Positions 7,227-33,146 of a DNA stretch of 64,000 nucleotides are shown here, in pieces. The number at the start of each line of letters is the position of its first letter. Position 1 is the first letter of the stretch. The notes under the pieces are model-generated. The model was not told the DNA's origin and did not search any database. It saw only the letters and a list, made by a program, of their open reading frames with translations. The stretch is from contig NC_081183.1 in assembly GCF_029867415.1 (NCBI RefSeq), positions 55,378,336 through 55,442,335 of the forward strand. The letters run 5' to 3'. A program made the translations under genes and the position numbers. This stretch comes from Vicia villosa (taxonomy: Eukaryota > Streptophyta > Magnoliopsida > Fabales > Fabaceae).

Positions 7227-7299
7227 CTGTAACAAAGATGGAAATTATTAACTTAGTAAGGGAAAGGGAAGTCAGTCTAAAGTTTAACTAGACCCAAAC

Positions 7300-9823: not shown

Positions 9824-9825
9824 TT

Positions 9826-10776
9826 TGTTGGCTGGAGATTTCGTTTTAAGAAGTTGACCTTCGAAGGTTTTGAGTTCGAAGAGTGATGGTTACTGAAGAC
9901 CATCTTTGAAGATTTAAAAATGGCTACTGATGGCCATGCTTCAAGAAAGATGTCTAAGTTTGAACGAAGGAGAGAAGTATTAAAGCTAGCACGAAAGACA
10001 CTTTTGCCAAGACTTAGATATTTCGCGGAAAATTACATGAAGTACTGAAGCTTAATGTGTTTCCGCATCATTTTCGAATATAGTTATATTGCCACGCGTC
10101 GAAAAGGACTCGAGCGGGAAGATTCGAATTGCGAAACGGTTTTCGTAAACTGCACATCGACAGATGGCATCCCCAGAGTTCTCGTGGATAACGTGGCATT
10201 AGATTATTGTACGACCGTTAGGGTCGAATTTAGTATAAATAGGAGTCTTAATGATAGGATTTCGTGTGTTCATTTTGTACAAATTACTCACATATCGCTC
10301 AAGTATCAAGTGTTAAGAGAAAGAGTTCGCTGAGAAATGTACGTATGACACCACCAATTTGAATACATGTGTATTTACTTTTATCAAATGTCTTTTGTTT
10401 TCCTTACTTCTTTTTCTCTGTTTAAATTTTTACTTTCGAAGTAATTTAATTTTCATGCACGTTAACTTTCTTGCAATTTAACATTCTTGTACGTTAACTT
10501 TCTTGCAATTTACATTCTCGCAATTTACATGTTTTTCTTATTACGATTTATGCTTCGAAATTACACTAACTTATGCAACCAGCGTTATATCGAATGATTA
10601 ATCATTTGAACATAAGTTTCTAGAAATCAAAACAAACAGGTATGAACCAAATCACATCAATAAACCTTTTGTTTGACTATGTCCTAGGATCAATCTAGTC
10701 GATCCTGCGAGTAGCCAAATCATATTTATTATAGTTTGGAAGACTAGCGGTTGTTTACCGGAAATCACCGTAAACA
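9826..10776 (+). repeat. 3' LTR of Tat-like copy 1
   Basis: 951 bp, TGTTGGCTGG to CGTAAACA. It has one base (gtagcc near 10713) that neither its own 5' LTR nor copy 2 shares, so that change came after the duplication. The ORF at 10055-10333 inside it is a chance frame. It is followed by AAATT, the mutated target duplication, and then satellite sequence. Confidence 0.95.
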
Positions 10777-13700
10777 AAATTATAAAGTTTGTTTTTGTAA
10801 ATTCATAAAAAAATGTCAAAGTAAATATAAAATATTATATATACCAAGTAATTTATCACCATTTGTAGCTGAGAGGATATATGAAAAAGCAACAAAATCT
10901 AAATGATTTGTTGGAATTTCATTCACAACTATGTTACTGCACTTTGTAGCTCCCATAAAGTTCAATTTGAACTTGTGTGTTGTCGGTTTGAATTTTGATT
11001 TCAGTTTTGGCAACTAAGACATTTTCAATTAAATAAGTAGAACCATCCTTTAAGGATTCTTGAAACTGTGTGATAAGTCTTTTCTTCACTATAGCCTAAA
11101 TGTTTCCTTACTACAATGAAAAAAAGATGAAAATACAAAAAAAAATCAATATAGATTGTAAATATTATTATGAAATTAAAAATATAAAATATTTATACCT
11201 TTTCGTCAAGTAGAATCATCTCCAAACTGTTTATTTCAGATGGATTTTTGAATTCAGGTTGAGTCCACATACAAATGAATCGAACCTTCAAATTCCAATC
11301 AATCTTTCCAGCATGAATGTTATCAATGAAAGTAATTATAGGAAGTGCCATTGAATAAACTATGGAAAAGAAGCTGAATATTGGAGAGATGAATTTATAC
11401 CAATTTGGTGGAAGAGAACTGAATTTATACCAATCTGGAGGAGGAGGAGGAGTTACGCATTAATAAAATGAGATTGTGATTTGTAACATGGGTTTATGAT
11501 TTATAAAAAACGTGGGTTTAGAATTTGGATATGGGGTTTTAAAACAAGTATCAAAGAACGTGGGTTTGTGATTTAAAAAATAAGAATGTATGGTTGGTTG
11601 ACCTGGTAATGAAACATGGGTTTGAATTAATACGTTGGTGAAAGAAGTAGTTTTTTTAGGATTTATATTATTTAATATATTTAATATTTAATAATAATTA
11701 GTGTGTTTAATCTATTTAAATCAACTAAAAAGTAGGAAACAATGAATGTAGTTTTTTTAGGGTTTATTTCATTTAATATATTTAATAAATTAATAATTAG
11801 TAATGAAATGTGGTGACAATGAAAGTTGTTTCAGAAAAAAATATATACCATAAATTAATTTATGTAATTAAATATAATGATAAACTATTATTAAATCTTA
11901 CTCTAAATCCTCAAGAACAATGTTAATCATCTGGTAGTTTTTTCCATTCTTTGGAGTTTGTTTGATGTTGTCCTTTTCCACAATATGTGGAATTACATCT
12001 GTTAAATTTAAGAAAAAAATTACATATAAATTGAGCCAAATGAATTATAAAGTTTGTTTTTGTAAATTCATAAAAAAATGTGAAAGTAAATATAAAATAG
12101 TATATATACCAAGTAATTTATCACCATTTGTAGCTGAGAGGATATATGAAAAAGCAACAAAATCTAAATGATTTGTTGGAATTTCATTCACAACTATGTT
12201 ACTGCACTTTGTAGCTCCCATAAAGTTCAATCTGAACTTGTGTGTTGTCGGTTTGAATTTTTATTTCAGTTTTGGCAACTAAGGCATTTTCAATTAAATA
12301 AGTAGAACCTTCCTTTAAGGATTCTTGAAACTGTGTGATAAGTCTTTTCTTCACTGTAGCCTTAATGTTTCCATACTACAATGAAAAAAAGAAGAAAATA
12401 CAAAAAAAAAAAAATCAATATAGATTGTAAATATTATTATGAAATTAAAAATATAAAATATTTATACCTTTTCGTCAAGTAGAATCATCTCCAAACTGTT
12501 TGTTTCAGATGGATTTTTTTAATTCAGGTTGAGTCCACATACAAATGAATCGAACCTTCAAATTCCAATCAATCTTTCCAGCGTGAATGTTATCAATGAA
12601 AGTAATTATAGGAAGTGCCATTGAATAAACTATGGAAAAGAAGCTGAATATTGGAGAGATGAATTTATACCAATTTGGTGGAAGAGAACTGAATTTATAC
12701 CAATCTGGAGGAGGAGGAGGAGTTACGCATTAATAAAATGAGATTGTGATTTGTAACATGGGTTTATGATTTATAAAAAACGTGGGTTTAGAATTTGGAT
12801 ATGGGGTTTTAAAACAAGTATCAAAGAACGTGGGTTTGTGATTTAAAAAATAAGAATGTATGGTTGGTTGACCTGGTAATGAAACATGGGTTTGAATTAA
12901 TACGTTGGTGAAAGAAGTAGTTTTTTTAGGATTTATATTATTTAATATATTTAATATTTAATAATAATTAGTGTGTTTAATCTATTTAAATCAACTAAAA
13001 AGTAGGAAACAATGAATGTAGTTTTTTTAGGGTTTATTTCATTTAATATATTTAATAAATTAATAATTAGTAATGAAATGTGGTGACAATGAAAGTTGTT
13101 TCAGAAAAAAATATATACCATAAATTAATTTATGTAATTAAATATAATGATAAACTATTATTAAATCTTACTCTAAATCCTCAAGAACAATGTTAATCAT
13201 CTGGTAGTTTTTTCCATTCTTTGGAGTTTGTTTGATGTTGTCCTTTTCCACAATATGTGGAATTACATCTGTTAAATTTAAGAAAAAAATTACATATAAA
13301 TTGAGCCAAATGAATTATAAAGTTTGTTTTTGTAAATTCATAAAAAAATGTGAAAGTAAATATAAAATAGTATATATACCAAGTAATTTATCACCATTTG
13401 TAGCTGAGAGGATATATGAAAAAGCAACAAAATCTAAATGATTTGTTGGAATTTCATTCACAACTATGTTACTGCACTTTGTAGCTCCCATAAAGTTCAA
13501 TTTGAACTTGTGTGTTGTCGGTTTGAATTTTTATTTCAGTTTTGGCAACTAAGGCATTTTCAATTAAATAAGTAGAACCTTCCTTTAAGGATTCTTGAAA
13601 CTGTGTGATAAGTCTTTTCTTCACTGTAGCCTAAATGTTTCCATACTACAATGAAAAAAAGATGAAAATACAAAAAAAAAAAATCAATATAGATTGTAAA

Positions 13701-16700
13701 TATTATTATGAAATTAAAAATATAAAATATTTATACCTTTTCGTCAAGTAGAATCATCTCCAAACTGTTTGTTTCAGATGGATTTTTTGAATTCAGGTTG
13801 AGTCCACATACAAATGAATCGAACCTTCAAATTCCAATCAATCTTTCCAGCGTGAATGTTATCAATGAAAGTAATTATAGGAAGTGCCATTGAATAAACT
13901 ATGGAAAAGAAGCTGAATATTGGAGAGATGAATTTATACCAATTTGGTGGAAGAGAACTGAATTTATACCAATCTGGAGGAGGAGGAGGAGTTACGCATT
14001 AATAAAATGAGATTGTGATTTGTAACATGGGTTTATGATTTATAAAAAACGTGGGTTTAGAATTTGGATATGGGGTTTTAAAACAAGTATCAAAGAACGT
14101 GGGTTTGTGATTTAAAAAATAAGAATGTATGGTTAGTTGACCTGGTAATGAAACATGGGTTTGAATTAATACGTTGGTGAAAGAAGTAGTTTTTTTAGGA
14201 TTTATATTATTTAATATATTTAATATTTAATAATAATTAGTGTGTTTAATCTGTTTAAATCAACTAAAAAGTAGGAAACAATGAATGTAGTTTTTTTAGG
14301 GTTTATTTCATTTAATATATTTAATAAATTAATAATTAGTAATGAAACGTGGTGACAATGAAAGTTGTTTGAGAAAAAAATATATACCATAAATTAATTT
14401 ATGTAATTAAATATAATGATAAACTATTATTAAATCTTACTCTAAATCCTCAAGAACAATGTTAATCATCTGGTAGTTTTTTCCATTCTTTGGAGTTTGT
14501 TTGATGTTGTCCTTTTCCACAATATGTGGAATTACATCTGTTAAATTTAAGAAAAAAATTACATATAAATTGAGCCAAATGAATTATAAAGTTTGTTTTT
14601 GTAAATTCATAAAAAAATGTGAAAGTAAATATAAAATATTATATATACCAAGTAATTTATCACCATTTGTAGCTGAGAGGATATATGAAAAAGCAACAAA
14701 ATCTAAATGATTTGTTGGAATTTCATTCACAACTATGTTACTGCACTTTGTAGCTCCCATAAAGTTCAATTTGAACTTGTGTGTTGTCGGTTTGAATTTT
14801 GATTTCAGTTTTGGCAACTAAGACATTTTCAATTAAATAAGTAGAACCTTCCTTTAAGGATTCTTGAAACTGTGTGATAAGTCTTTTCTTCACTGTAGCC
14901 TAAATGTTTCCATACTACAATGAAAAAAAGATGAAAATACAAAAAAAAAAATCAATATAGATTGTAAATATTATTATGAAATTAAAAATATAAAATATTT
15001 ATACCTTTTCGTCAAGTAGAATCATCTCCAAACTGTTTGTTTCAGATGGATTTTTGAATTCAGGTTGAGTCCACATACAAATGAATCGAACCTTCAAATT
15101 CCAATCAATCTTTCCAGCGTGAATGTTATCAATGAAAGTAATTATAGGAAGTGCCATTGAATAAACTATGGAAAAGAAGCTGAATATTGGAGAGATGAAT
15201 TTATACCAATTTGGTGGAAGAGAACTGAATTTATACCAATCTGGATGAGGAGGAGGAGTTACGCATTAATAAAATGAGATTGTGATTTGTAACATGGGTT
15301 TATGATTTATAAAAAACGTGGGTTTAGAATTTGGATATGGGGTTTTAAAACAAGTATCAAAGAACGTGGGTTTGTGATTTAAAAAATAAGAATGTATGGT
15401 TAGTTGACCTGGTAATGAAACATGGGTTTGAATTAATACGTTGGTGAAAGAAGTAGTTTTTTTTAGGATTTATATTATTTATATTATTTAATATTTAATA
15501 ATAATTAGTGTGTTTAATCTGTTTAAATCAACTAAAAAGTAGGAAACAATGAATGTAGTTTTTTTAGGGTTTATTTCATTTAATATATTTAATAAATTAA
15601 TAATTAGTAATGAAACGTGGTGACAATGAAAGTTGTTTGAGAAAAAAATATATACCATAAATTAATTTATGTAATTAAATATAATGATAAACTATTATTA
15701 AATCTTACTCTAAATCCTCAAGAACAATGTTAATCATCTGGTAGTTTTTTCCATTCTTTGGAGTTTGTTTGATGTTGTCCTTTTCCACAATATGTGGAAT
15801 TACATCTGTTAAATTTAAGAAAAAAATTACATATAAATTGAGCCAAATGAATTATAAAGTATGTTTTTGTAAATTCATAAAAAAATGTGAAAGTAAATAT
15901 AAAATAGTATATATACCAAGTAATTTATCACCATTTGTAGCTGAGAGGATATATGAAAAAGCAACAAAATCTAAATGATTTGTTGGAATTTCATTCACAA
16001 CTATGTTACTGCACTTTGTAGCTCCCATAAAGTTCAATTTGAACTTGTGTGTTGTCGGTTTGAATTTTTATTTCAGTTTTTGCAACTAAGGCATTTTCAA
16101 TTAAATAAGTAGAACCTTCCTTTAAGGATTCTTGAAACTGTGTGATAAGTCTTTTCTTCACTGTAGCCTAAATGTTTCCATACTACAATGAAAAAAAGAT
16201 GAAAATACAAAAAAAAAAATCAAAATAGATTGTAAATATTATTATGAAATTAAAAATATAAAATATTTATACCTTTTCGTCAAGTAGAATCATCTCCAAA
16301 CTGTTTGTTTCAGATGGATTTTTGAATTCAGGTTGAGTCCACATACAAATGAATCGAACCTTCAAATTCCAATCAATCTTTCCAGCGTGAATGTTATCAA
16401 TGAAAGTAATTATAGGAAGTGCCATTGAATAAAGTATGGAAAAGAAGCTGAATATTGGAGAGATGAATTTATACCAATTTGGTGGAAGAGAACTGAATTT
16501 ATACCAATCTGGAGGAGGAGGAGGAGTTACGCATTAATAAAATGAGATTGTGATTTGTAACATGGGTTTATGATTTATAAAAAACGTGGGTTTAGAATTT
16601 GGATATGGGGTTTTAAAACAAGTATCAAAGAACGTGGGTTTGTGATTTAAAAAATAAGAATGTATGGTTAGTTGACTTGGTAATGAAACATGGGTTTGAA

Positions 16701-19700
16701 TTAATACGTTGGTGAAAGAAGTAGTTTTTTTTAGGATTTATATTATTTATATTATTTAATATTTAATAATAATTAGTGTGTTTAATCTGTTTAAATCAAC
16801 TAAAAAGTAGGAAACAATGAATGTAGTTTTTTTAGGGTTTATTTCATTTAATATATTTAATAAATTAATAATTAGTAATGAAACGTGGTGACAATGAAAG
16901 TTGTTTGAGAAAAAAATATATACCATAAATTAATTTATGTAATTAAATATAATGATAAACTATTATTAAATCTTACTCTAAATCCTCAAGAACAATGTTA
17001 ATCATCTGGTAGTTTTTTCCATTCTTTGGAGTTTGTTTGATGTTGTCCTTTTCCACAATATGTGGAATTACATCTGTTAAATTTAAGAAAAAAATTACAT
17101 ATAAATTGAGCCAAATGAATTATAAAGTTTGTTTTTGTAAATTCATAAAAAAATGTGAAAGTAAATATAAAATAGTATATATACCAAGTAATTTATCACC
17201 ATTTGTAGCTGAGAGGATATATGAAAAAGCAACAAAATCTAAATGATTTGTTGGAATTTCATTCACAACTATGTTACTGCACTTTGTAGCTCCCATAAAG
17301 TTCAATTTGAACTTGTGTGTTGTCGGTTTGAATTTTTATTTCAGTTTTGGCAACTAAGGCATTTTCAATTAAATAAGTAGAACCTTCCTTTAAGGATTCT
17401 TGAAACTGTGTGATAAGTCTTTTCTTCACTGTAGCCTAAATGTTTCCATACTACAATGAAAAAAAGATGAAAATACAAAAAAAAAAATCAATATAGATTG
17501 TAAATATTATTATGAAATTAAAAATATAAAATATTTATACCTTTTCGTCAAGTAGAATCATCTCCAAACTGTTTGTTTCAGATGGATTTTTGAATTCAGG
17601 TTGAGTCCACATACAAATGAATCGAACCTTCAAATTCCAATCAATCTTTCCAGCGTGAATGTTATCAATGAAAGTAATTATAGGAAGTGCCATTGAATAA
17701 ACTATGGAAAAGAAGCTGAATATTGGAGAGATGAATTTATACCAATTTGGTGGAAGAGAACTGAATTTATACCAATCTGGATGAGGAGGAGGAGTTACGC
17801 ATTAATAAAATGAGATTGTGATTTGTAACATGGGTTTATGATTTATAAAAAACGTGGGTTTAGAATTTGGATATGGGGTTTTAAAACAAGTATCAAAGAA
17901 CGTGGGTTTGTGATTTAAAAAATAAGAATGTATGGTTAGTTGACCTGGTAATGAAACATGGGTTTGAATTAATACGTTGGTGAAAGAAGTAGTTTTTTTT
18001 AGGATTTATATTATTTAATATATTTAATATTTAATAATAATTAGTGTGTTTAATCTGTTTAAATCAACTAAAAAGTAGGAAACAATGAATGTAGTTTTTT
18101 TAGGGTTTATTTCATTTAATATATTTAATAAATTAATAATTAGTAATGAAACGTGGTGACAATGAAAGTTGTTTGAGAAAAAAATATATACCATAAATTA
18201 ATTTATGTAATTAAATATAATGATAAACTATTATTAAATCTTACTCTAAATCCTCAAGAACAATGTTAATCATCTGGTAGTTTTTTCCATTCTTTGGAGT
18301 TTGTTTGATGTTGTCCTTTTCCACAATATGTGGAATTACATCTGTTAAATTTAAGAAAAAAATTACATATAAATTGAGCCAAATGAATTATAAAGTTTGT
18401 TTTTGTAAATTCATAAAAAAATGTGAAAGTAAATATAAAATAGTATATATACCAAGTAATTTATCACCATTTGTAGCTGAGAGGATATATGAAAAAGCAA
18501 CAAAATCTAAATGATTTGTTGGAATTTCATTCACAACTATGTTACTGCACTTTGTAGCTCCCATAAAGTTCAATTTGAACTTGTGTGTTGTCGGTTTGAA
18601 TTTTTATTTCAGTTTTGGCAACTAAGGCATTTTCAATTAAATAAGTAGAACCTTCCTTTAAGGATTCTTGAAACTGTGTGATAAGTCTTTTCTTCACTGT
18701 AGCCTTAATGTTTCCATACTACAATGAAAAAAAGATGAAAATACAAAAAAAAAATCAATATAGATTGTAAATATTATTATGAAATTAAAAATATAAAATA
18801 TTTATACCTTTTCGTCAAGTAGAATCATCTCCAAACTGTTTGTTTCAGATGGATTTTTGAATTCAGGTTGAGTCCACATACAAATGAATCGAACCTTCAA
18901 ATTCCAATCAATCTTTCCAGCGTGAATGTTATCAATGAAAGTAATTATAGGAAGTGCCATTGAATAAACTATGGAAAAGAAGCTGAATATTGGAGAGATG
19001 AATTTATACCAATTTGGTGGAAGAGAACTGAATTTATACCAATCTGGATGAGGAGGAGGAGTTACGCATTAATAAAATGAGATTGTGATTTGTAACATGG
19101 GTTTATGATTTATAAAAAACGTGGGTTTAGAATTTGGATATGGGGTTTTAAAACAAGTATCAAAGAACGTGGGTTTGTGATTTAAAAAATAAGAATGTAT
19201 GGTTAGTTGACCTGGTAATGAAACATGGGTTTGAATTAATACGTTGGTGAAAGAAGTAGTTTTTTTTAGGATTTATATTATTTAATATATTTAATATTTA
19301 ATAATAATTAGTGTGTTTAATCTGTTTAAATCAACTAAAAAGTAGGAAACAATGAATGTAGTTTTTTTAGGGTTTATTTCATTTAATATATTTAATAAAT
19401 TAATAATTAGTAATGAAACGTGGTGACAATGAAAGTTGTTTGAGAAAAAAATATATACCATAAATTAATTTATGTAATTAAATATAATGATAAACTATTA
19501 TTAAATCTTACTCTAAATCCTCAAGAACAATGTTAATCATCTGGTAGTTTTTTCCATTCTTTGGAGTTTGTTTGATGTTGTCCTTTTCCACAATATGTGG
19601 AATTACATCTGTTAAATTTAAGAAAAAAATTACATATAAATTGAGCCAAATGAATTATAAAGTTTGTTTTTGTAAATTCATAAAAAAATGTGAAAGTAAA

Positions 19701-22049
19701 TATAAAATAGTATATATACCAAGTAATTTATCACCATTTGTAGCTGAGAGGATATATGAAAAAGCAACAAAATCTAAATGATTTGTTGGAATTTCATTCA
19801 CAACTATGTTACTGCACTTTGTAGCTCCCATAAAGTTCAATTTGAACTTGTGTGTTGTCGGTTTGAATTTTTATTTCAGTTTTGGCAACTAAGGCATTTT
19901 CAATTAAATAAGTAGAACCTTCCTTTAAGGATTCTTGAAACTGTGTGATAAGTCTTTTCTTCACTGTAGCCTTAATGTTTCCATACTACAATGAAAAAAA
20001 GATGAAAATACAAAAAAAAAATCAATATAGATTGTAAATATTATTATGAAATTAAAAATATAAAATATTTATACCTTTTCGTCAAGTAGAATCATCTCCA
20101 AACTGTTTGTTTCAGATGGATTTTTGAATTCAGGTTGAGTCCACATACAAATGAATCGAACCTTCAAATTCCAATCAATCTTTCCAGCGTGAATGTTATC
20201 AATGAAAGTAATTATAGGAAGTGCCATTGAATAAACTATGGAAAAGAAGCTGAATATTGGAGAGATGAATTTATACCAATTTGGTGGAAGAGAACTGAAT
20301 TTATACCAATCTGGAGGAGGAGGAGGAGTTACGCATTAATAAAATGAGATTGTGATTTGTAACATGGGTTTATGATTTATAAAAAACGTGGGTTTAGAAT
20401 TTGGATATGGGGTTTTAAAACAAGTATCAAAGAACGTGGGTTTGTGATTTAAAAAATAAGAATGTATGGTTAGTTGACCTGGTAATGAAACATGGGTTTG
20501 AATTAATACGTTGGTGAAAGAAGTAGTTTTTTTTAGGATTTATATTATTTAATATATTTAATATTTAATAATAATTAGTGTGTTTAATCTGTTTAAATCA
20601 ACTAAAAAGTAGGAAACAATGAATGTAGTTTTTTTAGGGTTTATTTCATTTAATATATTTAATAAATTAATAATTAGTAATGAAACGTGGTGACAATGAA
20701 AGTTGTTTGAGAAAAAAATATATACCATAAATTAATTTATGTAATTAAATATAATGATAAACTATTATTAAATCTTACTCTAAATCCTCAAGAACAATGT
20801 TAATCATCTGGTAGTTTTTTCCATTCTTTGGAGTTTGTTTGATGTTGTCCTTTTCCACAATATGTGGAATTACATCTGTTAAATTTAAGAAAAAAATTAC
20901 ATATAAATTGAGCCAAATGAATTATAAAGTTTGTTTTTGTAAATTTATAAAAAAATGTGAAAGTAAATATAAAATAGTATATATACCAAGTAATTTATCA
21001 CCATTTGTAGCTGAGAGGATATATGAAAAAGCAACAAAATATTAATGATTTGTTGGAATTTCATTCACAACTATGTTACTGCACTTTGTAGCTCCCATAA
21101 AGTTCAATTTGAACTTGTGTGTTGTCGGTTTGAATTTTTATTTCAGTTTTGGCAACTAAGGCATTTTCAATTAAATAAGTAGAACCTTCCTTTAAGGATT
21201 CTTGAAACTGTGTGATAAGTCTTTTCTTCACTGTAGCCTTAATGTTTCCATACTACAATGAAAAAAAGATGAAAATACAAAAAAAAAAAATCAATATAGA
21301 TTGTAAATATTATTATGAAATTAGAAATATAAAATATTTATACCTTTTCGTCAAGTAGAATCATCTCCAAACTGTTTGTTTCGGATGGATTTTTGAATTC
21401 AGGTTGAGTCCACATACAAATGAATCGAACCTTCAAATTCCAATCAATCTTTCCCGCGTGAATGTTATCAATGAAAGTAATTATAGGAAGTGCCATTGAA
21501 TAAACTATGGAAAAGAAGCTGAATATTGGAGAGATGAATTTATACCAATTTGGTGGAAGAGAACTGAATTTATACCAATCTGGAGGAGGAGGAGGAGGAG
21601 TTACGCATTAATAAAATGAGATTGTGATTTGTAACATGGGTTTATGATTTATAAAAAACGTGGGTTTAGAATTTGGATATGGGGTTTTAAAACAAGTATC
21701 AAAGAACGTGGGTTTGTGATTTAAAAAATAAGAATGTATGGTTAGTTGACCTGGTAATGAAACATGGGTTTGAATTAATACGTTGGTGAAAGAAGTAGTT
21801 TTTTTAGGATTTATATTATTTAATATATTTAATATTTAATAATAATTAGTGTGTTTAATCTGTTTAAATCAACTAAAAAGTAGGAAACAATGAATGTAGT
21901 TTTTTTAGGGTTTATTTCATTTAATATATTTAATAAATTAATAATTAGTAATGAAACGTGGTGACAATGAAAGTTGTTTGAGAAAAAAATATATACCATA
22001 AATTAATTTATGTAATTAAATATAATGATAAACTATTATTAAATCTTAC

Positions 22050-22765
22050 TCTAAATCCTCAAGAACAATGTTAATCATCTGGTAGTTTTTTCCATTCTTT
22101 GGAGTTTGTTTGATGTTGTCCTTTTCCACAATATGTGGAATTACATCTGTTAAATTTAAGAAAAAAATTACATATAAATTGAGCCAAATGAATTATAAAG
22201 TTTGTTTTTGTAAATTCATAAAAAAATGTGAAAGTAAATATAAAATAGTATATATACCAAGTAATTTATCACCATTTGTAGCTGAGAGGATATATGAAAA
22301 AGCAACAAAATCTAAATGATTTGTTGGAATTTCATTCACAACTATGTTACTGCACTTTGTAGCTCCCATAAAGTTCAATTTGAACTTGTGTGTTGTTGGT
22401 TTAAATTTTTATTTCAGTTTTGGCAACTAAGGCATTTTCAATTAAATAAGTAGAACCTTCCTTTAAGGATTCTTGAAACTGTGTGATAAGTCTTTTCTTC
22501 ACTGTAGCCTTAATGTTTCCATACTACAATGAAAAAAAGATGAAAATACAAAAAAAAAATCAATATAGATTGTAAATATTATTATGAAATTAAAAATATA
22601 AAATATTTATACCTTTTCGTCAAGTAGAATCATCTCCAAACTGTTTGTTTCAGATGGATTTTTGAATTCAGGTTGAGTCCACATACAAATGAATCGAACC
22701 TTCAAATTCCAATCAATCTTTCCAGCGTGAATGTTATCAATGAAAGTAATTATAGGAAGTGCCAT
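22050..22765 (-). pseudogene. RPA70-like gene fragment, the reference unit of the satellite (exons 1-3)
   Basis: Minus-strand reading: exon 1 22765-22613 (51 codons, MALPIITFID to MILLDEK), donor GTATAAAT; exon 2 22523-22258 (YGNIKATVKKRLITQFQES to GDKLLG), acceptor ATTGTAG, donor GTATATAT; exon 3 22146-22050 (DVIPHIVEKDNIKQTPKNG to VLEDLE), acceptor TTAACAG, donor GTAAGA. Motifs such as LEMILLDEK, GSTYLIEN, HKFKLNFMGATK and a DVIP/G stretch are those of plant RPA70-like proteins with an N-terminal OB fold (DUF223 type), which bind single-stranded DNA. Exon 2 is 266 bp where splice phases require 3n+1. The frame breaks in an A-run, with about one extra base. Later exons are absent. All other monomers carry the same layout, so none can make the normal protein. 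Confidence 0.82.
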
Positions 22766-22806
22766 TGATTAAACTATGGAAAAGAAGCTGAATATTGGAG
22801 AGATGA

Positions 22807-23180
22807 ATTTATACCAATTTGGTGGAAGAGAACTGAATTTATACCAATCTGGAGGAGGAGGAGGAGTTACGCATTAATAAAATGAGATTGTGAATTGTAA
22901 CATGGGTTTATGATTTATAAAAAACGTGGGTTTATAATTTGGATATGGGGTTTTAAAACAAGTATCAAAGAACGTGGGTTTGTGATTTAAAAAATAAGAA
23001 TGTATGGTTAGTTGACCTGGTAATGAAACATGGGTTTGAATTAATACGTTGGTGAAAGAAGTAGTTTTTTTAGGATTTATATTATTTAATATATTTAATA
23101 TTTAATAATAATTAGTGTGTTTAATCTGTTTAAATCAACTAAAAAGTAGGAAACAATGAATGTAGTTTTTTTAGGGTTTA
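22807..23180 (-). promoter_or_regulatory. Promoter-like region of the RPA70-like satellite unit
   Basis: Upstream of the minus-strand ATG lie two TATAAAT boxes at 22813-22807 and 22843-22837, in a 30-bp tandem duplication of the motif TTGGTATAAATTCA (22806-22850). Further up, four copies of AAACCCAYG (plus strand catgggttt or cgtgggttt) stand at about 22901, 22925, 22973 and 23029. A telo-box AAACCCTAA lies at about 23171-23180. Tandem TATA boxes, ACGT-core repeats and a telo-box are features of active plant promoters. Activity is inferred only. Confidence 0.5.
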
Positions 23181-23460
23181 TTTCATTAAATATATTTAAT
23201 AAATTAATAATTAGTAATGAAACGTGGTGACAATGAAAGTTGTTTGAGAAAAACATATATACCATAAATTAATTTATGTAATTAAATATAATGATAAACT
23301 ATTATTAAATCTTACTCTAAATCCTCAAGAACAATGTTAATCATCTGGTAGTTTTTTCCATTCTTTGGAGTTTGTTTGATGTTGTCCTTTTCCACAATAT
23401 GTGGAATTACATCTGTTAAATTTAAGAAAAAAATTACATATAAATTGAGCCAAATGAATT

Positions 23461-24411
23461 TGTTGGCTGGAGATTTCGTTTTAAGAAGTTGACCTTCGAA
23501 GGTTTTGAGTTTGAAGAGTGATGGTTACTGAAGACCATCTTTGAAGATTTAAAAATGGCTACTGATGGCCATGCTTCAAGAAAGATGTCTATGTTTGAAC
23601 GAAGGAGAGAAGTATTAAAGCTAGCACGAAAGACACTTTTGCCAAGACTTAGATATTTCGCGGAAAATTACATGAAGTACTGAAGCTTAATTTGTTTCCG
23701 CATCATTTTCGAATATAGTTATATTGCCACGCGTCGAAAAGGACTCAAGCGGGAAGATTCGAATTGCGAAACGGTTTTCGTAAACTGCACATCGACAGAT
23801 GGCATCCCCAGAGTTATCGTGGATAACGTGGCATTAGATTATTGTACGACCGTTAGGGTCGAATTTAGTATAAATAGGAGTCTTAATGATAGGATTTCGT
23901 GTGTTCATTTTGTACAAATTACTCACATATCGCTCAAGTATCAAGTGTTAAGAGAAAGAGTTCGCTGAGAAATGTACGTATGACACCACCAATTTGAATA
24001 CATGTGTATTTACTTTTATCAAATGTCTTTTGTTTTCCTTACTTCTTTTTCTCTGTTTAAATTTTTACTTTCGAAGTAATTTAATTTTCATGCACGTTAA
24101 CTTTCTTGCAATTTAACATTCTTGTACGTTAACTTTCTTGCAATTTACATTCTCGCAATTTACATGTTTTTCTTATTACGATTTATGCTTCGAAATTACA
24201 CTAACTTATGCAACCAGCGTTATATCGAATGATTAATCATTTGAACATAAGTTTCTTGAAATCAAAACAAACAGGTATGAACCAAATCACATCAATAAAC
24301 CTTTTGTTTGACTATGTCCTAGGATCAATCTAGTCGATCCTGCGAGTAACCAAATCATATTTATTATAGTTTGGAAGACTAGCGGTTGTTTACCGGAAAT
24401 CACCGTAAACA
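23461..24411 (+). repeat. 5' LTR of Tat-like copy 2
   Basis: 951 bp and, by eye, identical to the 5' LTR of copy 1, including the six bases that separate 5' from 3' LTRs in both copies. TATA box at 23869-23878. Confidence 0.95.
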
Positions 24412-24414
24412 AAT

Positions 24415-24432
24415 TGGCACGCCCAGTGGGAC
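24415..24432 (+). other. Primer binding site of Tat-like copy 2
   Basis: TGGCACGCCCAGTGGGAC three bases after the LTR, the same as in copy 1. Confidence 0.75.
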
Positions 24433-24495
24433 AGTGTCAAACTAAGTGTTATTAATTGATTGTTTTGTTTTGTCTAGAAATTGTCTAGACCTTGT

Positions 24496-25776
24496 ATGAA
24501 CCTTAGGAACGGTAAATTAACCAACAGTGCAAAACTAGTTCCTAAACGAAGGTACAACAAGAAAATGGTCGTAGCGGCCAGTGCAGGGGGCGAAGAAAAT
24601 CCCCCACAAGGATCAGGAACAGTAGCGTCAAACGCGACGAATGTTTCGACGTTCACTCAAGGAGTGCAGGCCATACCGGTTTCGACAGGATCTGAACCAG
24701 CGGGTAGTTCGCAAGCCATGATCGAAAATACTTCCACATCAACTGGGACTATCCCAATGTCAGTATCGACTACTGCTCCTCCGCCTGTAAGTGCAAGCGA
24801 GATACCACCCGTATCGACGAACGCTGCAAGTCATTTATCTACCCCAGGACCTTCATTCACTGTAAATGGTTGGAGACCAAATATGTCATACGGGATGCCA
24901 TATTCGTATATGGCAGGACTACAAAGAGCAGGACCTACATACGCTACAACCAACCCAGCGGCGTTTTCACCAAACATGGGTTCAGTAGGTCGAAGTGCAC
25001 ACAATATTGGTGCGTCGACTCAGATTCCCCCTATGACCACTAGTACTCAAGCAGCATTCCGACAAGACATGGATGCAAGCAACCAGGACATGGTAGGACT
25101 CCTTGCTAGAGAGTTAGGGACCATCTTTGATCCAATAGTAACAAGCATCACTAGATCTAGCCAGGATAGCGCAGAAACATACCAAAGGTTATCGTCACAA
25201 TTGGGACGAATGGCGGATTTTTTAGGAGTCCCACAAGATAGACAAAGGAATAACCAGTCAACCTACCAAGAAGAAGATCCAATTATCCGACAAATTCGAA
25301 ATACAGAACCCCCACCAAGGCCAAATCCAGTCGGACAGAACCCAATGGTCGAATTGGGAACTCAAATCGAAACAACGGAGACTGGCCAACAAGCTGTCCC
25401 TCGACAACAGCCCAGAGTAGTCATGGTAGGGAGAGACGAACATCCTGACGCAGTTATCCACAGAGTCAGGAGAAATGATTTGGCAATAGAAAATAATCTT
25501 ACTGCCATGATAGAAAGAATAATGGCTAATAACGGTCTAAATACTGGATTTCGACGTCCAAATTACACATCTCCCATACCTGAATACATCATGCAAAGTG
25601 AATTGCCAAGGGGCGTTAAGGTACCCAAGTTCACCAAATTTGCAGGGGATACTAATGAATCAACGGTGGAGCATATAGCCAGATATTTAACAGAGGCAGG
25701 AACGCTAGCAGGAACGCTAGCAGGCAAACAAAATCATAATTGGTCTCATAAAGAAACATGTAGGGAAAAAACCTAG
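24496..25776 (+). pseudogene. gag: gag, C-terminally truncated (Tat-like copy 2)
   Basis: The translation is identical to copy 1: ATG at 24496, low-complexity Ser/Thr/Pro/Gln-rich N-terminal region, the gag segment KVPKFTKFAGDTNESTVEH, then the deletion junction with its 12-bp tandem repeat and a short foreign tail. No zinc knuckle. The complete identity over this part contrasts with the substitutions in the right half of the element. Confidence 0.85.
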
Positions 25777-26308
25777 AAGTTGGCACAAAACTTTGGACCA
25801 AGCACTTTGGGCTTGTCGAACATCTCCAAAAGAAGCTAAGAACACTACACCTTTTCAACTGACATTCGGACATGATGCGGTGCTCCCAGTTGAAATATAT
25901 TTGCAATCAGTCCGGATACAAAGACAAGCAGAAATTCCCCCTAACATGTACTGGGAATTGATGATGAATGAATTGGTTGACTTGGACGAAGATAGACTTC
26001 GAGCTTTGGAGGTGATAAAGAGACAGAAAGAAAGGGTGTCCAGAGCATACAATAAAAAGGTGAAAGGTAAAACGTTTATTAATAATGACTTAGTGTGGAA
26101 AGTTATTTTACCTATAGATCGAAAGAACCAAGCTTTGGGGAAATGGTCCCCACACTGGGAAGGCCCTTTTCGAATCTTGAAAGTATTTTCAAATAATGCT
26201 TACGAGATAGAGGAATTAGCAGAAGATCGTAGGATTTTAAGAGTAAATGGGAAGTATCTAAAGAGATACAAACCAAGCATGCACGAAGTAAAGATTGCAA
26301 AAACGTAG
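25724..26308 (+). pseudogene. Integrase C-terminal remnant (Tat-like copy 2)
   Basis: Identical in translation to the copy-1 fragment. It holds the end of the integrase core and the C-terminal domain (WSPHWEGPFRILKVF) and lacks the HHCC zinc domain and the catalytic Asp and Glu residues. It overlaps the tail of the gag frame in another reading frame, as expected for a deletion junction. Confidence 0.88.
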
Positions 26309-26510
26309 ATATTTAAGTAATACTACGCAAGCCAAAATGGTCAAATTTGCACCAAAATGGCTCCGTGACCAGGAAACATGTATAAATAAAAGTACGGCAA
26401 AAGATCTTCATTAATTTTAAAAAGTGAAAGGTACAAACGACTTTGGTCCATATGGAACAGCAAAGATTACAAAAAGTAGAGCAGTAAAAAACCTAAAAAG
26501 GAACTATTCT

Positions 26511-27248
26511 TTAGTTGACCCTCTGGTCTAAGTCTTCCAAAGATAGCGTATGAAGACCCTCTGCTTCGAACATGTTCATGCGACCCGAGTCCCGCATCCT
26601 TCGCACTACACCTTTCCTGAGGAACAAGTAGGATAAAAACCTACCAAAAGGGAGGCAACTTACTGTACCCTCTCGAGAGGAAGTTAAAGCAACAGTTTCC
26701 ACAAGTCGTTTGAAGATCATCAAAGGAAAGTTGATCTTCGCCCCTCGTAAAGCACAGGAGATGAACTCCAAGTCTTCCACCGTAATCTGGTTTTCATCAC
26801 AGCTTCGTGGATAAAAGTTACCCACTAGAAGTTGATGCCAAATCCTGAGGATTTTGGCGGTATAAGGATCATTCTCCATGAGACTCGCCAGTAAAACAGA
26901 AGTGGTCATGGTGAAACTGTTATCATCAAAGGTTGCTCCAGTGTTGCTGCAGCGCAACAACTCAGAGATGGTGGAAGGCGTGATAGATACTTCAGCCCCT
27001 CGAATGTTAGAAACTATTGTAGTTCTTCCTTCAGGATCAATGCGTAGGTACGCAAACATCCAGAAATCAGCTAGCATCTTAGGATAAACATTTCCTTCTA
27101 GAATATATAGGTAAAAACCCATCTCCTAGTTCTGGAAAAGGGCAGGAAGGCTGATGTGATGCCTGTTGAATTCTTCTGGGCAAGGTTTGAACTCTTTTTT
27201 GATAAACGTTCTAATGTTGGCATAGGATAAGTTGTTGTTGAGTGCCAT
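26511..27248 (-). pseudogene. aORF2, copy 2, interrupted by a stop
   Basis: Same sequence as in copy 1: ATG at 27248, in-frame TAG at 27125-27123 after 41 codons, then about 204 open codons to 26511. The TATA box CTATATAAAGGG is at 27364-27357. The shared stop shows that the gene was already broken before the duplication. Family assignment (Transposase_32-like) is tentative. Confidence 0.6.
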
Positions 27249-27356
27249 GCTAAAAGTTGGAAAAAGTTTGTAGTTGAAAAGAGTACGAGAAGGAAGAAGA
27301 GAGTTCTGAAATGAAGGGGTAAAAAGAGTGTGAAGAGAAGAAAGGGACACTAACCC

Positions 27357-27364
27357 TTTATATA
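27357..27364 (-). promoter_or_regulatory. TATA box for aORF2, copy 2
   Basis: TATATAAA on the minus strand, about 110 bp above the ATG at 27248, identical to copy 1. The 450 bp on its right, up to 27815, hold no gene. Confidence 0.65.
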
Positions 27365-27815
27365 GTCATGAGGAACGGTAAAGAAACGTTTTTTGGTTTT
27401 AATGATTGATTAGATTGCATTTGGTGTTTCCAGAGGGAAGTTATGATCACCGCCGTTTCCCGCCCTTGGAAGGTGAAATGTAATCATAAAACTGATGCAC
27501 GCACGTCTTAAATAGACGTTTGGAAAAGAAATGACGTCAGCAAATAATGATGATTACGGCTAATGGGAGGAGAAACGTCAAGTCTAGGGCTGCGAAGGGC
27601 AATCGAGCCACGTGAGGCATTCATTAAGGTTACTGTGGCGTAAAAAGGAAGGTATTGGTAAGATTTTGAAGTATTGCCAAACATTTACCATGGATCATTT
27701 CAGAGCAAAATGTGAACACATAAAAAGACAAGTTTGCATACATATATATTCTGAAAATGAGCAAGTACAAAACAAAAGGATCATCGCTACAAAAAAATAC
27801 AAAGTTCGAAGACAA

Positions 27816-30800
27816 TTAAATAAAATCCCTAGGAAGGCTATCTTTGATCTTTGAGTATTGAGCCTCCCACGAAGACATACTAAGCTCGAGTAATGCTCGT
27901 TGCCTCTTTAACTCTTCGATCTCTGGCACCAATTTCTGTGCAGCTTCGAAGTGTTGGATACCCAGCCGTGCTACTTCAGCTATCTCCTGATTATTGGTTT
28001 GTTGAATAGTAGCTTGGCGAGACTTAGCTTCCTGTATCTTCTCTTCGAGTTTCTTAATCTCTTGCTTCCAAGATTGTATATTTTTCTCACACTCATCATA
28101 TTCTTTTTGGTTCTTCAAACGGTCCATCCTAAGAGCGTCACCCTTGTTGGTTGCCTCAGTGGCAGCTTTCCATGAAGAACTATGAGAAGCCATTTTTGCA
28201 GCAAGCTGCTCATTAACATTGTTCTGTCGAAGAATGTTAGACTGAAGCTGGTCGAGTAATGAGCCCAAAAGTACAATCACATCTGAGACCTCTTTCGAAA
28301 CCAGAAGTAAATCCACTTTCTTCAAGAGTTGCTTCAAGCCATGACATTTCATGGAATCCTTGCTTAAGAATTCGTCGAGGTTCGTTTCGAAGAAATGTTC
28401 CTTTATTTGATGAAGGAGGCTGGAGATGTCCTCTTTGTCTCTAGACTTGGTCTGAACAGTTGGAGAAGCTTCAGACGTAAGAATTGAAGTACTATCAATG
28501 TTCATCACGGTTTTAAGAAAGCTGAGAGGATCAGTTTGTTTAGGTTGCTCCAATTTTGAAGGAGTAGGTATGGTTGGAGTAGGCAGTGGAGTAGTTTCGG
28601 GAATAACTACAGTTTCGACATTTGAGTTTCCACAGGGGTCAGTTTCGATTAACTTGGAGGTTTTTTCTGCGACACCTTGATCAGATACGGTGTCCTCACT
28701 CCCAGTCGATGGTACCGCTGCATTATCTTCGCCTAAGAAGTGACCCTCCTCACCCATACATGCGTCTTTGCGAATAGGAGGAGAATCATCAGTCGAATGG
28801 CTTCCTTCAACAGGGGATGCAGTATTGATAGTGGCAAGAGGAGCGATATCTTCAAGGACTGGTGAAAGTATATGAGAAATGTGTTGAGAGGCATCTGCAA
28901 AATGAGCAAATATGGGTAATTGTGGTGTAAGAGTTGCAAGAGAATTATTCAATTTAAGCAAAAGACTTCTTTGCTCACCTTGGGGACTACCAAGGTCAAT
29001 AGCAGCATTGAAAGAGTTGAAATCAGAAGTAGCTGTTCCGATATCATCCTGCAATCATAAGGTGATATTAATTTAATCATTCGAAATAAAGTTCATAGAA
29101 ATGATTATGCTGTAAAGACCTAGATACCTTAGCTGTATTAGTGGCTGGACTTGAATTGTGGCTTTCCATCACTAGAGCGTTACTAGTGGCTTTTAAAGGT
29201 GATTCTTCAGAAGGCGCCTTATCACTCGAAGAGGTAATCTTCGAAGACCCAGATTTTTTCCCTTTGCCCACAGGAGTGGTAGCCTTTTGTTTCTTTTTGG
29301 GCCCTTGCCTGGTACGAGGGGGAGACTTGTCGTCCCCATCTGAAGCAGCATCTGGAGTAGTAGTTGGAAGAGTATTTCGCTTCGAAGATATTGGAGGCTT
29401 CGAACTCTGAAAAAATAAAAAGAGAAGAGAAAATAAGCGTTATCCGTAAGACATGCAAATTGGAATATGAAAGGTGTGTATACCGTGGGTTTCGCGTCAG
29501 TCGTAATAGAATCACTCCCACTTGGCTTATTGCTCTTCGAAGCCTCAGAATATTTCTGCGCAGGAATTGTTTTAGCCTTTCTCTTGTGAGCAACAGCTGT
29601 AACAAAGATGGAAATTATTAACTTAGTAAGGGAAAGGGAAGTCAGTCTAAAGTTTAACTAGACCCAAACCTTCGGGTATTGGAGTCAAGACACGAACGTG
29701 TTTAAGATCTATATGAATATGCCCTTTGAAAGTATCCAGGGTATGCTTAGTCGGGACCACTCGTTCAGCGTGTTTTTTGGTACTCTCTCGAAGAATTTTG
29801 AGATCATTCCCACACACGAACCAGTCTGGGAAAGGAGGACTTAAAGCCACACCAAAATCAGCACTTGGTAGTGGAGGGAATTTTGGAGGATTAAGTTTAA
29901 ATGCCACTTCATAACGTAGTTCTGGTCGAACAGACGGGGGCAATTTCAACTTATCCAGTTTTGCAGAAAACTTTTCACGTAAAGTAACAGCAGCTTCGCG
30001 AACTGTCCGACTAAGATCATCAGGCCTGTAAATAGTTTCAAAGAACTTTTGAAAAGCTTGGATTTCTTTAATGTGAGTTGAAGTACCTTTGCGAAATTTA
30101 TCCAGCACAGCAGTAAAAGCTTCAGTTAGTTCTCAAGTTAGGCCTTCGACATCATAGATGTGTGTGGTATAATAATCTGACCACCATTGTTGAAAATCTG
30201 GAGTGGTATAGAAAGCAGGACAAAAGAGATAGGTGAAAGGGTGAAAACATCAGTATATTTGGCTATCTTCGCTTCACATTCCTCTTCAGTTAGGTATAAG
30301 GTACGGAAACACATGTGGTTCCTTTTGTCATACAAACACTTAGGCTTCATTTGGACCAAACCAAACTGTCTTGACACAAGATTTGGCTGATAGCAAACAA
30401 GGATGTATTGACCTTTGGAAGGTCGAAGGCGGTAATAGAATAACCTTGGGATAAGGAAAGCTTCCCAAATAGCCAAAGATTCAGCTTGGTGTTCCGGAGA
30501 TGTTGCAGGAAACTCTCGAGTAAACCATTCAGGACCTACAGCTCTTCGTACAAATGGAGCCATTGAAGAACTGAACTGGTAACGTTTAGCAAACATCATT
30601 ACATATGCTAAGAAATGTTCACGAAGTTTCCCAGTCTCTTCTTTTGGGGTCAACAAGGCCAATCTGGTCCCTTCGACAGTTTGATTTTTGATTTCTGGAA
30701 TTTCTTCGTTAACGACGCCCCGGAATGGGAGGTGTGCTTCGAAAGTGGCATTAAGCCATAATTGTAGTAACCAGAACGGAGCAGCGAAAAGGAGAGATCC

Positions 30801-31753
30801 TGTTGTGTAAGTCTTTACAAGGTCTACAGCTTCACCAAGGTTTTCATAAAGAAATCCTAGAATCAATTCGCTCAGGTTCAATTTCTTGCCATCGTGTAAT
30901 TGATTAGCCATGCATAGATATCTTTTCGCTACTTGTATGGACCTGGAGCAGAAAACACATCTCGAAAGCCATAATGCCAGGAAAGCAATATGTTCTACGT
31001 CGGAGACTTCAACATTTGTCTGATCATGGTATTGCTGGATGAAAGCAGTATAAGTAACTGTAGCTTCGTTGAAGTTGATGGTATCAACATCCAAGACATT
31101 AGGATCAAAAGTTTCACCAGTCGGTCGAAGCCCTGTGATGGCAGCTACATCGAAAAGAGTTGGAGTAATCATTCCACATGGGAGATGAAAGGTATTGTGA
31201 GAAGCGTCCCAGAAGTGGACTGACGCTACTAACATAGTTTGGTTATACTCTAAACCAGTCTTGGACAATTGAATGAGATCATAAATCCCTAATTCTTGCC
31301 AGAAAGAAGCCTTCTGTTTCTCCACTTTGTTTAACCAAGAATAGTATAGTTCTGGATCCTTTGCTAAAGGGATTGACCTAAAAACCCTTACAAAATTGGT
31401 TACATAATCTAACCTAATTTTCTCTAAGACTACGGGAGGCGTAGTCGAAGCTTCTTCTATAGGGTTAACATCCTCTGAGATTGGATTACCTTTGTCATCT
31501 ATTTTTATCTTGCTCACAGAGGCCTAGTCTTATAATATGCAGGAAAGAATTTATCTAGTGAACTATTTTCTCCTGATAATGGGCCCATGAAAGCACAAGT
31601 TTTTCCAGAAAGTTCAAAAGGGATGATTACCTGAGAAGCGTAAATAGCGCGTTCCTCCGCAGTATTCGGTTTGGGAATGTATTCCTGATTCCCCAGTTGT
31701 GTAGGTTTCTGAAGCTTCAGAACTGGTTGGAGAACATTTGAAGAAGACGCCAT
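27816..31753 (-). pseudogene. aORF1, copy 2: antisense PMD plus coiled-coil gene with introns, frameshifted
   Basis: Exons on the minus strand: 31753-29670, 29596-29484, 29406-29128, 29048-27816, with the same splice sites as copy 1. The PMD region (HFWDASHNTFHLPCGMITPT), basic linker and C-terminal coiled coil are all present. Frameshifts near 31516 and 30140 and the TGA before the LDKFRKG segment are shared with copy 1. Replacement differences from copy 1 include Gln for Arg in KNQTVEG, Phe for Leu in REHFLAYV, Gly for Asp in NNGGQI, Leu for Gln in LDKFRKG, Phe for Ser in PPKFPPL and Pro for Leu in LEQPKQTD. Most differences alter amino acids, as expected for drift without constraint. Promoter region 31754-32180 with TATA-like TTTAAATACT at 31870-31861. 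Confidence 0.75.
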
Positions 31754-32180
31754 TGAAAGATGTTTGATTTGGGGAAGAAGTTTGAAGGTAACTAAGTATG
31801 TTGTTTTCTGGAAAGAGTTTGAAGAAATGGAACTGAAAGGAAAAAGAAAGGAAGAGACTAAGTATTTAAAGGTTTAACGGGAACCCTTTCAAACCTTTTG
31901 GGTAAAAACTAGAAGACACGCGGCAAGCATTGATTTAATCCAACGGCGGTCGAATAGTCACCAGCTCTATTCCTAGGATATAGGAGTAATGATCATAAAG
32001 TAAGGTCAAGACGTGGGAATGTAACTGTTGAGAAGACGTTTCTGAAAGCGACAAGACATTTTGGAAATAGAGTTATAATTGATTATGACGTCAATTATTA
32101 GTCTTGGGACTCTAAGAAAGCAAAACGAAATCCCATTATAGCAAGAAACGCCTATTTCTTTCGTTGGTCGAAACATGCAT

Positions 32181-32193
32181 TTATTGGGGGCAA
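32181..32193 (+). other. Polypurine-tract region of Tat-like copy 2
   Basis: TTATTGGGGGCAA before the 3' LTR, the same as copy 1. Confidence 0.55.
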
Positions 32194-32195
32194 TT

Positions 32196-33146
32196 TGTTG
32201 GCTGGAGATTTCGTTTTAAGAAGTTGACCTTCGAAGGTTTTGAGTTCGAAGAGTGATGGTTACTGAAGACCATCTTTGAAGATTTAAAAATGGCTACTGA
32301 TGGCCATGCTTCAAGAAAGATGTCTAAGTTTGAACGAAGGAGAGAAGTATTAAAGCTAGCACGAAAGACACTTTTGCCAAGACTTAGATATTTCGCGGAA
32401 AATTACATGAAGTACTGAAGCTTAATGTGTTTCCGCATCATTTTCGAATATAGTTATATTGCCACGCGTCGAAAAGGACTCGAGCGGGAAGATTCGAATT
32501 GCGAAACGGTTTCCGTAAACTGCACATCGACAGATGGCATCCCCAGAGTTCTCGTGGATAACGTGGCATTAGATTATTGTACGACCGTTAGGGTCGAATT
32601 TAGTATAAATAGGAGTCTTAATGATAGGATTTCGTGTGTTCATTTTGTACAAATTACTCACATATCGCTCAAGTATCAAGTGTTAAGAGAAAGAGTTCGC
32701 TGAGAAATGTACGTATGACACCACCAATTTGAATACATGTGTATTTACTTTTATCAAATGTCTTTTGTTTTCCTTACTTCTTTTTCTCCGTTTAAATTTT
32801 TACTTTCGAAGTAATTTAATTTTCATGCACGTTAACTTTCTTGCAATTTAACATTCTTGTACGTTAACTTTCTTGCAATTTACATTCTCGCAATTTACAT
32901 GTTTTTCTTATTACGATTTATGCTTCGAAATTACACTAACTTATGCAACCAGCGTTATATCGAATGATTAATCATTTGAACATAAGTTTCTAGAAATCAA
33001 AACAAACAGGTATGAACCAAATCACATCAATAAACCTTTTGTTTGACTATGTCCTAGGATCAATCTAGTCGATCCTGCGAGTAACCAAATCATATTTATT
33101 ATAGTTTGGAAGACTAGCGGTTGTTTACCGGGAATCACCGTAAACA
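32196..33146 (+). repeat. 3' LTR of Tat-like copy 2
   Basis: 951 bp. It shares six diagnostic bases with the 3' LTR of copy 1 and has three of its own that I noticed (tttccg near 32512, ctccgttt near 32789, ccgggaatc near 33131). It is followed by intact GAATT at 33147-33151. Confidence 0.95.

What the first reader, a model, noticed from the sequence alone, without database searches (positions are those of the whole stretch)
22050..23180. The satellite monomer is a promoter plus the first three exons of an RPA70-like gene
Seen: an ATG exon, two introns with good GT/AG sites and agreeing phases, and residues typical of plant RPA70-like OB-fold proteins on the minus strand of every monomer. Known: RPA-like genes are carried by plant Helitrons, and Helitrons can amplify by rolling circle into tandem arrays. 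Inferred: the array began as a gene fragment, perhaps Helitron-borne, that ended at the third 5' splice site and was then amplified. A satellite keeping a whole promoter and splice sites is unusual.
Basis: partly seen in the sequence, partly recalled or inferred. Interest (0 to 1): 0.85.

Follow-up and report, generated by a model that had tools for sequence, protein, structure and literature searches.

The report
Satellite grown inside a Helitron transposon
In what is very probably hairy vetch, a piece of a Helitron transposon (the control region and first three exons of its own replication-protein gene, now broken) was copied head to tail into a satellite array that spans hundreds of kilobases, insertions included, with the transposon's own sequence still lying at the array's edge.

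Summary
On the minus strand each ~1,267-bp unit carries 5' flank, ATG exon, two GT/AG introns and a third exon; the spliced read-through matches DUF223 (RPA-type OB fold; Pfam E=2e-13). Two details fail: exon 2 is out of frame in all 23 window copies that have it whole, and the unit ends 70 nt into intron 3, not at the splice site. Splice-site constancy is expected at this identity (p=0.42). The genome (size and scaffold number of Vicia villosa Vvill1.0) holds the donor family: two dispersed Helitrons with TC and hairpin-CTAG ends carry the same gene at 84% identity plus later exons, and their homology to the unit stops at one base. Both array blocks begin exactly there and run on into Helitron 5' sequence and a TC end. 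RPA 3' exons, RepHel and a CTAG end lie 16-40 kb beyond the other edge, same strand. The unit holds neither terminus, so rolling-circle concatemers are not indicated; insertions copied with neighbouring units point to growth in place. Helitron origin supported; the proposed amplification not.

The parts
1..1090 (-). satellite array segment (units of ~1,267 bp)
   Evidence: blastn of one unit against the window
10778..23460 (-). satellite array segment, about ten unit lengths
33147..40051 (-). satellite array segment
42157..43433 (-). satellite piece between solo-LTR-like inserts
45539..46815 (-). satellite piece between solo-LTR-like inserts
48940..50218 (-). satellite piece between solo-LTR-like inserts
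52324..57862 (-). satellite array segment, interrupted at 57862
21980..23245 (-). one amplified unit, bounded by the joints 21979/21980 and 23245/23246
   Evidence: joint read from the sequence with the comparison (TTTTTTTCTC of intron 3 joined to AAACAACTTTC of the Helitron 5' region)
22766..23245 (-). 5' flank of the Helitron's RPA gene (with a ~57-bp repeat pair and a duplicated TATAAATTCA stretch)
   Evidence: cons 964-1209 matches L030 3293-3538
22613..22765 (-). exon 1, MALPIITFIDNIHAGKIDW..LDEK
22258..22523 (-). exon 2, 266 nt, one nucleotide too long (frame broken)
   Evidence: L030, L031 and older units have 265 columns there
22050..22146 (-). exon 3, DVIPHIVEKDN..NIVLEDLE
21980..22049 (-). 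70-nt stub of intron 3 (GTAAG...) where the unit ends
1091..10777 (.). 9.69-kb LTR element inserted in the array, multiplied with it (second copy 22,370 bp away at the same unit position)
23461..33146 (.). second copy of the same insertion, 99.84% identical
40052..42156 (.). ~2.1-kb TG..CA insert (solo-LTR-like) in exon 1; also at 43434-45538, 46816-48939, 50219-52323, forming a ~3.38-kb higher-order repeat

Best explanation
A Helitron carrying an RPA-like gene inserted at this locus. Shown: an internal segment of it, from the 5' non-coding region (1.1 kb or more inside the TC end) to 70 nt into intron 3 of the RPA gene, is repeated head to tail, with no clear microhomology at the joint. Inferred: one illegitimate (non-homologous) duplication made the first pair of units. 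Shown: an LTR element and a solo-LTR-like insert are multiplied together with neighbouring units (22.37-kb and ~3.38-kb repeats). Inferred: the array therefore grew in place, by unequal exchange between chromatids. The gene pieces are decaying pseudogene DNA. No function is proposed beyond a selfish, homogenised satellite. The older block mostly has exon 2 in frame; a one-base insertion then spread through the younger block that holds the window.
For: DUF223 match. L030 and L031 match cons 31-825 and 269-825 at 84.0% and 84.8%, both stopping at 825, while L030 and L031 stay 87.4% alike across that point. They continue into further RPA exons and, in L030, a frame like the RepHel C-terminus, and end in CGTGCATCGCACGGG-N7-CTAG|T. 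Homology of L030, L031 and the C4 copy begins at TC; A precedes it in L030 and L031 and T follows their 3' end. The 5' pattern (up to 3 mismatches) occurs 557+522 times against 107+112 in the reversed control, the 3' pattern 232+252 against 0+0; of 46 listed exact 5' ends on C1-C3 up to 102.46 Mb, 16 have a listed same-strand downstream 3' end within 5 kb and 2 an opposite-strand one. The 5'-most unit of each array block starts at cons 826 and runs on into Helitron 5' sequence and TC at C4:55781851 and C4:55547476. RPA exon 5 to C-terminus, RepHel (Helitron_like_N 1.7e-25, PIF1 5.1e-41) and a CTAG end lie beyond the left edge on the same strand. Copied insertions. No constraint.
Against: The left edge has an assembly gap (C4:55365795-55365894); exon 3 to exon 4 are missing there, and about 16 kb of other sequence separates the edge from the RPA 3' exons. 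The RepHel/CTAG element may be a second Helitron: it has a 5'-type repeat of its own at 55336013. The base before the C4 TC end is C, not A. The assembly is of a heterozygous plant (PMC10659084, passages), so the two blocks, which share one host flank, may be haplotypes joined in tandem. No genome-wide count of the RPA 3' exons could be had. Against L031 exons are better kept than introns (0.865 v 0.784), though intron 1 of L031 is largely not homologous there.
Confidence: 0.8

Rival explanations
1. Helitron rolling-circle replication of a truncated element made the array (many 5' parts, one 3' end), the model credited to Xiong et al. 2016 in the review PMC12628747.
For: Two exact TC ends and one CTAG end lie around the array on its strand; the amplified part is from the 5' side of the element; the review describes such plant arrays (passages).
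Against: The two TC ends share one host flank, so they are copies of one insertion. The unit has no CTRRTC joint and none of its 10+10 CTRR sites lies behind a hairpin; this is weak alone, because the criterion finds the true ends of L030 and L031 but also fires at 3 of 76 and 3 of 98 other sites. The scan for further TC ends (up to 9 of 36 mismatches) covered the fetched left, window and middle stretches, L029 and L032, not L033 or L034; the complete list of exact genome-wide matches has only the two known ones in the array region; about 0.2 Mb of 55.552-55.779 Mb was not read. Each block's first unit is joined to unrearranged 5' sequence.
Confidence: 0.1
2. An extrachromosomal circle of the internal segment was amplified and reinserted, giving the array.
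For: The joint without clear microhomology would also fit circle formation; units also lie on unplaced contigs C1261 and C1329, whose place is unknown.
Against: The 5'-most units are in phase with the parental Helitron sequence, which reinsertion would have to reproduce by homologous integration at the source.
Confidence: 0.1
3. Tandem duplication of a host RPA70 gene, with no transposon involved.
For: The best solved relative is a chain named Replication factor-A protein 1, only at E=0.13.
Against: The same gene sits inside elements with TC and hairpin-CTAG ends, and the array is joined to that 5' end.
Confidence: 0.03
4. The units are maintained as coding or regulatory DNA (selection on promoter, splice sites or reading frame).
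For: GT/AG sites kept in 17 of 17 window units; exon 2 in frame in most fetched units of the older block; exons better kept than introns against L031 (0.865 v 0.784; intron 2 alone 0.835 v exon 2 0.891 and exon 3 0.794).
Against: Within the window exons vary about as much as introns; against L030 exons are not better kept than introns (0.864 v 0.899); 1 of 75 units is intact in frame and splice sites; splice constancy expected by chance p=0.42.
Confidence: 0.03

Closest known systems
Tandem arrays of truncated Helitrons in plant genomes (Xiong et al. 2016; the paper was not seen, only its description in review PMC12628747, passages)
   Same: tandem array of the 5' part of a Helitron, 3' part single or absent
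   Different: there the arrays are described as having multiple Helitron 5' ends; here the unit is internal and no terminus was found in it
Mothra Helitrons of rice and plant Helitron RPA (PHRPA; PMC4683698, passages)
   Same: plant Helitron with an RPA-like gene; AT-rich repeats in the element
   Different: Mothra's repeat blocks stay inside small elements; here promoter plus three exons became a 1.27-kb satellite unit
Satellites from internal repeats of Helitron-type elements (reviews PMC12692304 and PMC12628747, passages; DINE-TR1 seen there only as a cited title)
   Same: satellite born from an internal part of a Helitron-type element
   Different: those are described as expansions of short arrays inside the element; in L030 and L031 the unit occurs once
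Retrotransposon-derived satellites of Lathyrus sativus, a related legume (PMC7004042, passages)
   Same: legume satellite from a mobile element
   Different: source is a Helitron gene rather than an LTR element

Membership tests
satellite DNA | long head-to-tail array of homogenised units | tested here: met
   mean pairwise identity 98.7% for 17 window units; 98,114 bp of units in C4:55365895-55542335; further units listed to 55.780 Mb
satellite DNA | heterochromatic or centromeric location | not testable with these tools
   no chromatin or FISH data
Helitron (source element) | 5' TC end | tested here: met
   homology of L030, L031 and the C4 copy starts at TC
Helitron (source element) | 3' CTRR preceded by a hairpin | tested here: met
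   CGTGCATCGCACGGG-N7-CTAG in L030, L031 and at C4:55326320; the C4 end may belong to a separate element
Helitron (source element) | insertion between A and T, no target duplication | tested here: inconclusive
   A before and T after in L030 and L031; the C4 5' end is preceded by C
Helitron (source element) | RepHel protein in the family | tested here: inconclusive
   L030 holds a frame 80% identical in DNA to the RepHel C-terminus left of the array, itself without a convincing Pfam hit; Helitron_like_N and PIF1 lie in that left element, which may be a separate copy
Helitron (the satellite unit itself) | TC and CTRR ends at the unit joint | tested here: not met
   no CTRRTC joint and no CTRR behind a hairpin in the unit
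RPA-like / DUF223 protein gene | DUF223 match | tested here: met
   E=2e-13 for the read-through
RPA-like / DUF223 protein gene | intact reading frame | tested here: not met
   0 of 23 window copies in frame in exon 2; 1 of 75 units intact in frame and splice sites
plant Helitron RPA clade (PHRPA) | phylogenetic placement outside core RPA | not tested
   no tree built; only two fragments retrieved

The most novel reading that the evidence does not exclude
A Helitron locus amplified its own RPA promoter and first OB fold in place, so that for a time (older block, exon 2 in frame, and a TAA right after exon 3 if intron 3 stays unspliced) many copies could express truncated single-strand-binding peptides that interfere with Helitron replication: a transposon giving rise to its own brake, before frameshifts and stops spread through the array.
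Probability: 0.04. Interest if true: 0.8.

Novelty: new member of a known kind. Interest (0 to 1): 0.45.

Why it matters
How a satellite starts is rarely visible, because flanks and the founding joint are usually lost. Here the source family, the founding joint, the parental 5' sequence next to the first unit of both blocks, and later insertions that record how the array grew can be read in one assembly. That makes the steps of satellite birth testable in Vicia, and separates Helitron origin from Helitron replication as the amplifying process.

Tried and rejected
Host-gene origin: rejected after dispersed Helitron copies with the same gene were found. Unit as a complete Helitron concatemer: rejected. 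Selection on frame or splice sites: judged unlikely (the L031 comparison points the other way and is told under the rivals). The protein database gave two fragments that read through intron 2; a second search with the query padded with X to admit longer proteins had 965 word-sharing candidates and none at E<=1. Viral contigs: 8 stretches matched a pattern, none confirmed. Eight paper searches listed no report of this satellite; only open-licence papers are held. PMC4659654 (passages) reports 12.3% satellite DNA in V. villosa; its supplementary tables were not seen, so this unit may be among its unnamed clusters. One regex script timed out and one failed on a missing file; both were redone.

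Never answered: a copy count for the RPA 3' half and the DNA query L030:4430-5510. So the RPA exons beside the array have no genome-wide control; only the densities of Helitron ends are known.

Rows left out: one search used 17 full-length window units, only units whose gene part aligned whole (75), only whole exon 2 (77, before L033 and L034 were fetched); interrupted and truncated units were dropped. The border between younger and older block (55.5295 Mb) was set.

Full report
Setting. The window is G000:C4:55378336-55442335, in a genome of 2,034,964,285 bases in 1,888 contigs. The hairy vetch assembly Vvill1.0 has 2,034,988,938 bp in 1,888 scaffolds, seven of them matching linkage groups (PMC10659084, passages). 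The organism is therefore very probably Vicia villosa; the identification rests on these numbers only.

The unit. One unit used as a probe finds 30,058 bp, 23.7 unit equivalents, in the window, in one orientation and broken by insertions. On the minus strand the copy at 22765-22050 reads exon 1 (153 nt), intron (89), exon 2 (266), intron (111), exon 3 (97) and GTAAG. The read-through protein matches DUF223 at E=2e-13; exon 1 alone scores 0.047, the first part of exon 2 alone 0.0002, and the rest alone gives no match. The best solved chain, named Replication factor-A protein 1, is not significant (E=0.13). Exon 2 is one nucleotide too long: 0 of 23 window copies are in frame by length. L030, L031 and most units of the older part of the array lack the extra base, so the frameshift most likely arose within the array.

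Constraint. Over 17 full window units, substitutions per site and copy are 0.0073, 0.0117 and 0.0042 in exons 1-3, 0.0065 and 0.0079 in the introns, 0.0064 after exon 3 and 0.0031 in the 38 nt before ATG; variable sites fall 3, 7, 5 on codon positions 1, 2, 3 in exon 1 and 3, 2, 1 in exon 3. Five random dinucleotides would all be unaltered in the 17 copies with p=0.42. Of 75 units with a whole gene part (57 in the younger block, 18 in the older), 65 keep all five splice dinucleotides, 3 have an open spliced frame (all in the older block) and 1 has both. Against L030 exons are not better kept than introns (0.864 v 0.899). Against L031 they are (0.865 v 0.784), but intron 1 of L031 is largely not homologous there; intron 2 alone is 0.835 against 0.891 and 0.794 for exons 2 and 3. 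On balance this is homogenised pseudogene DNA.

The donor. A DNA search with the unit listed 139 matches, all on C4 from 55.41 to 55.70 Mb (best candidates only). The joined exons found units on C4 from 55.366 to 55.780 Mb, on unplaced contigs C1261 and C1329, and single matches on C574 and at two places of C3 (capped list). The two C3 places were read. L030 (C3:27262001-27272000) matches cons 31-825 at 84.0% and the 5' flank (964-1209) at 75%; L031 (C3:183221001-183230000) matches 269-825 at 84.8%; both stop at 825. Past that point L030 and L031 remain alike (87.4% over 1,033 bp), with a further exon, then in L030 a frame like the RepHel C-terminus and in L031 a zinc-finger-like exon (own Pfam hits weak). 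Both end in CGTGCATCGCACGGG-N7-CTAG followed by T, where their mutual homology ends. Their 5' homology starts at TC, with A before it in both. The 5' pattern (up to 3 mismatches) occurs 557+522 times against 107+112 for the reversed control; the 3' pattern (1 mismatch) 232+252 against 0+0. Of the 46 listed exact 5' ends on C1, C2 and C3 up to 102.46 Mb, 16 have a listed exact same-strand 3' end downstream within 5 kb (14 distinct 3' ends), 2 an opposite-strand one. So this is a Helitron family with an RPA-like gene.

The edges. At the right end (L032) the last unit starts at cons 826, the base after the dispersed copies stop, and the sequence runs on as Helitron 5' region to a TC end at C4:55781851, 1.13 kb on. 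A second block ends in the same way with TC at C4:55547476, 3.9 kb on, and the host flanks beyond the two TC ends are the same sequence: one insertion, later duplicated, or two haplotypes joined in scaffolding. The founding joint reads TTTTTTTCTC|AAACAACTTTC; intron 3 of the relatives goes on TTTACTAATC, and the 5' region of both first units reads CCCTAAAAAAACAACTTTC, so there is no clear microhomology. At the left end (gap at C4:55365795-55365894) a stub of about 34 bp of intron 2 borders other DNA. At 55349919-55349320 lie RPA exon 5 to C-terminus (Rep_fac-A_C 1.6e-5), and from about 55330 to 55326.3 kb RepHel (Helitron_like_N 1.7e-25, PIF1 5.1e-41, Pif1_2B 1e-21) ending in CTAG, all on the array's strand. 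Whether these belong to the same insertion is open: the RepHel element has a 5'-type repeat of its own at 55336013. With 484 3' ends in 2.03 Gb, one lying in the right orientation within 40 kb of the edge would be rare by chance (about 0.5%, my estimate), but Helitrons may cluster.

Growth. The 9.69-kb LTR element occurs twice at the same unit position, 22,370 bp apart (copies 99.84% identical; LTR pairs 99.27% and 99.05%), inside a 17.7-kb stretch that repeats at 99.45%. The ~2.1-kb insert occurs four times at ~3.38-kb spacing. Insertions that multiply with their neighbours show duplication of array segments; unequal exchange is the usual reading (inference). The unit has no CTRRTC joint and none of its 20 CTRR sites lies behind a hairpin; the same criterion finds the true ends of L030 and L031, with a background of 3 of 76 and 3 of 98 other sites. 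The array model credited to Xiong et al. in PMC12628747 (passages; the original not seen) keeps Helitron 5' ends, so it does not fit well.

Verdict. The Helitron guess is right about origin and, on this evidence, not about amplification. Known kind: a satellite from part of a mobile element. What is uncommon is that source, founding joint and growth record can all be read.

Noticed in passing
1091-10777 and 23461-33146: LTR element with a gag-like ORF, an ORF with weak integrase-end matches and, in antisense, ORFs with a plant mobile domain (PMD, E=1.2e-33) and Transposase_32 (5.7e-12): it looks like gene capture by an LTR element.
   Followed up: partly
40052-52323: A solo-LTR-like TG..CA insert of ~2.1 kb with a likely 5-bp target duplication (AATGT, read) became part of a four-copy ~3.38-kb higher-order repeat.
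   Followed up: partly
C4:55.37-55.55 and 55.60-55.78 Mb (outside the window): Two array blocks with the same host flank at their 5' ends: tandem duplication, or haplotypes joined in scaffolding of a heterozygous plant.
   Followed up: no
57863-63793: A gypsy-type element (1,180-aa open polyprotein ORF at 60251-63793; type recalled, not searched) seems to cut the array at 57862.
   Followed up: no
C2:158274584-158284133 (outside the window): Seven exact Helitron 3' ends in one orientation at about 1.0-1.8-kb spacing: perhaps a true tandem array of Helitron 3' ends.
   Followed up: no
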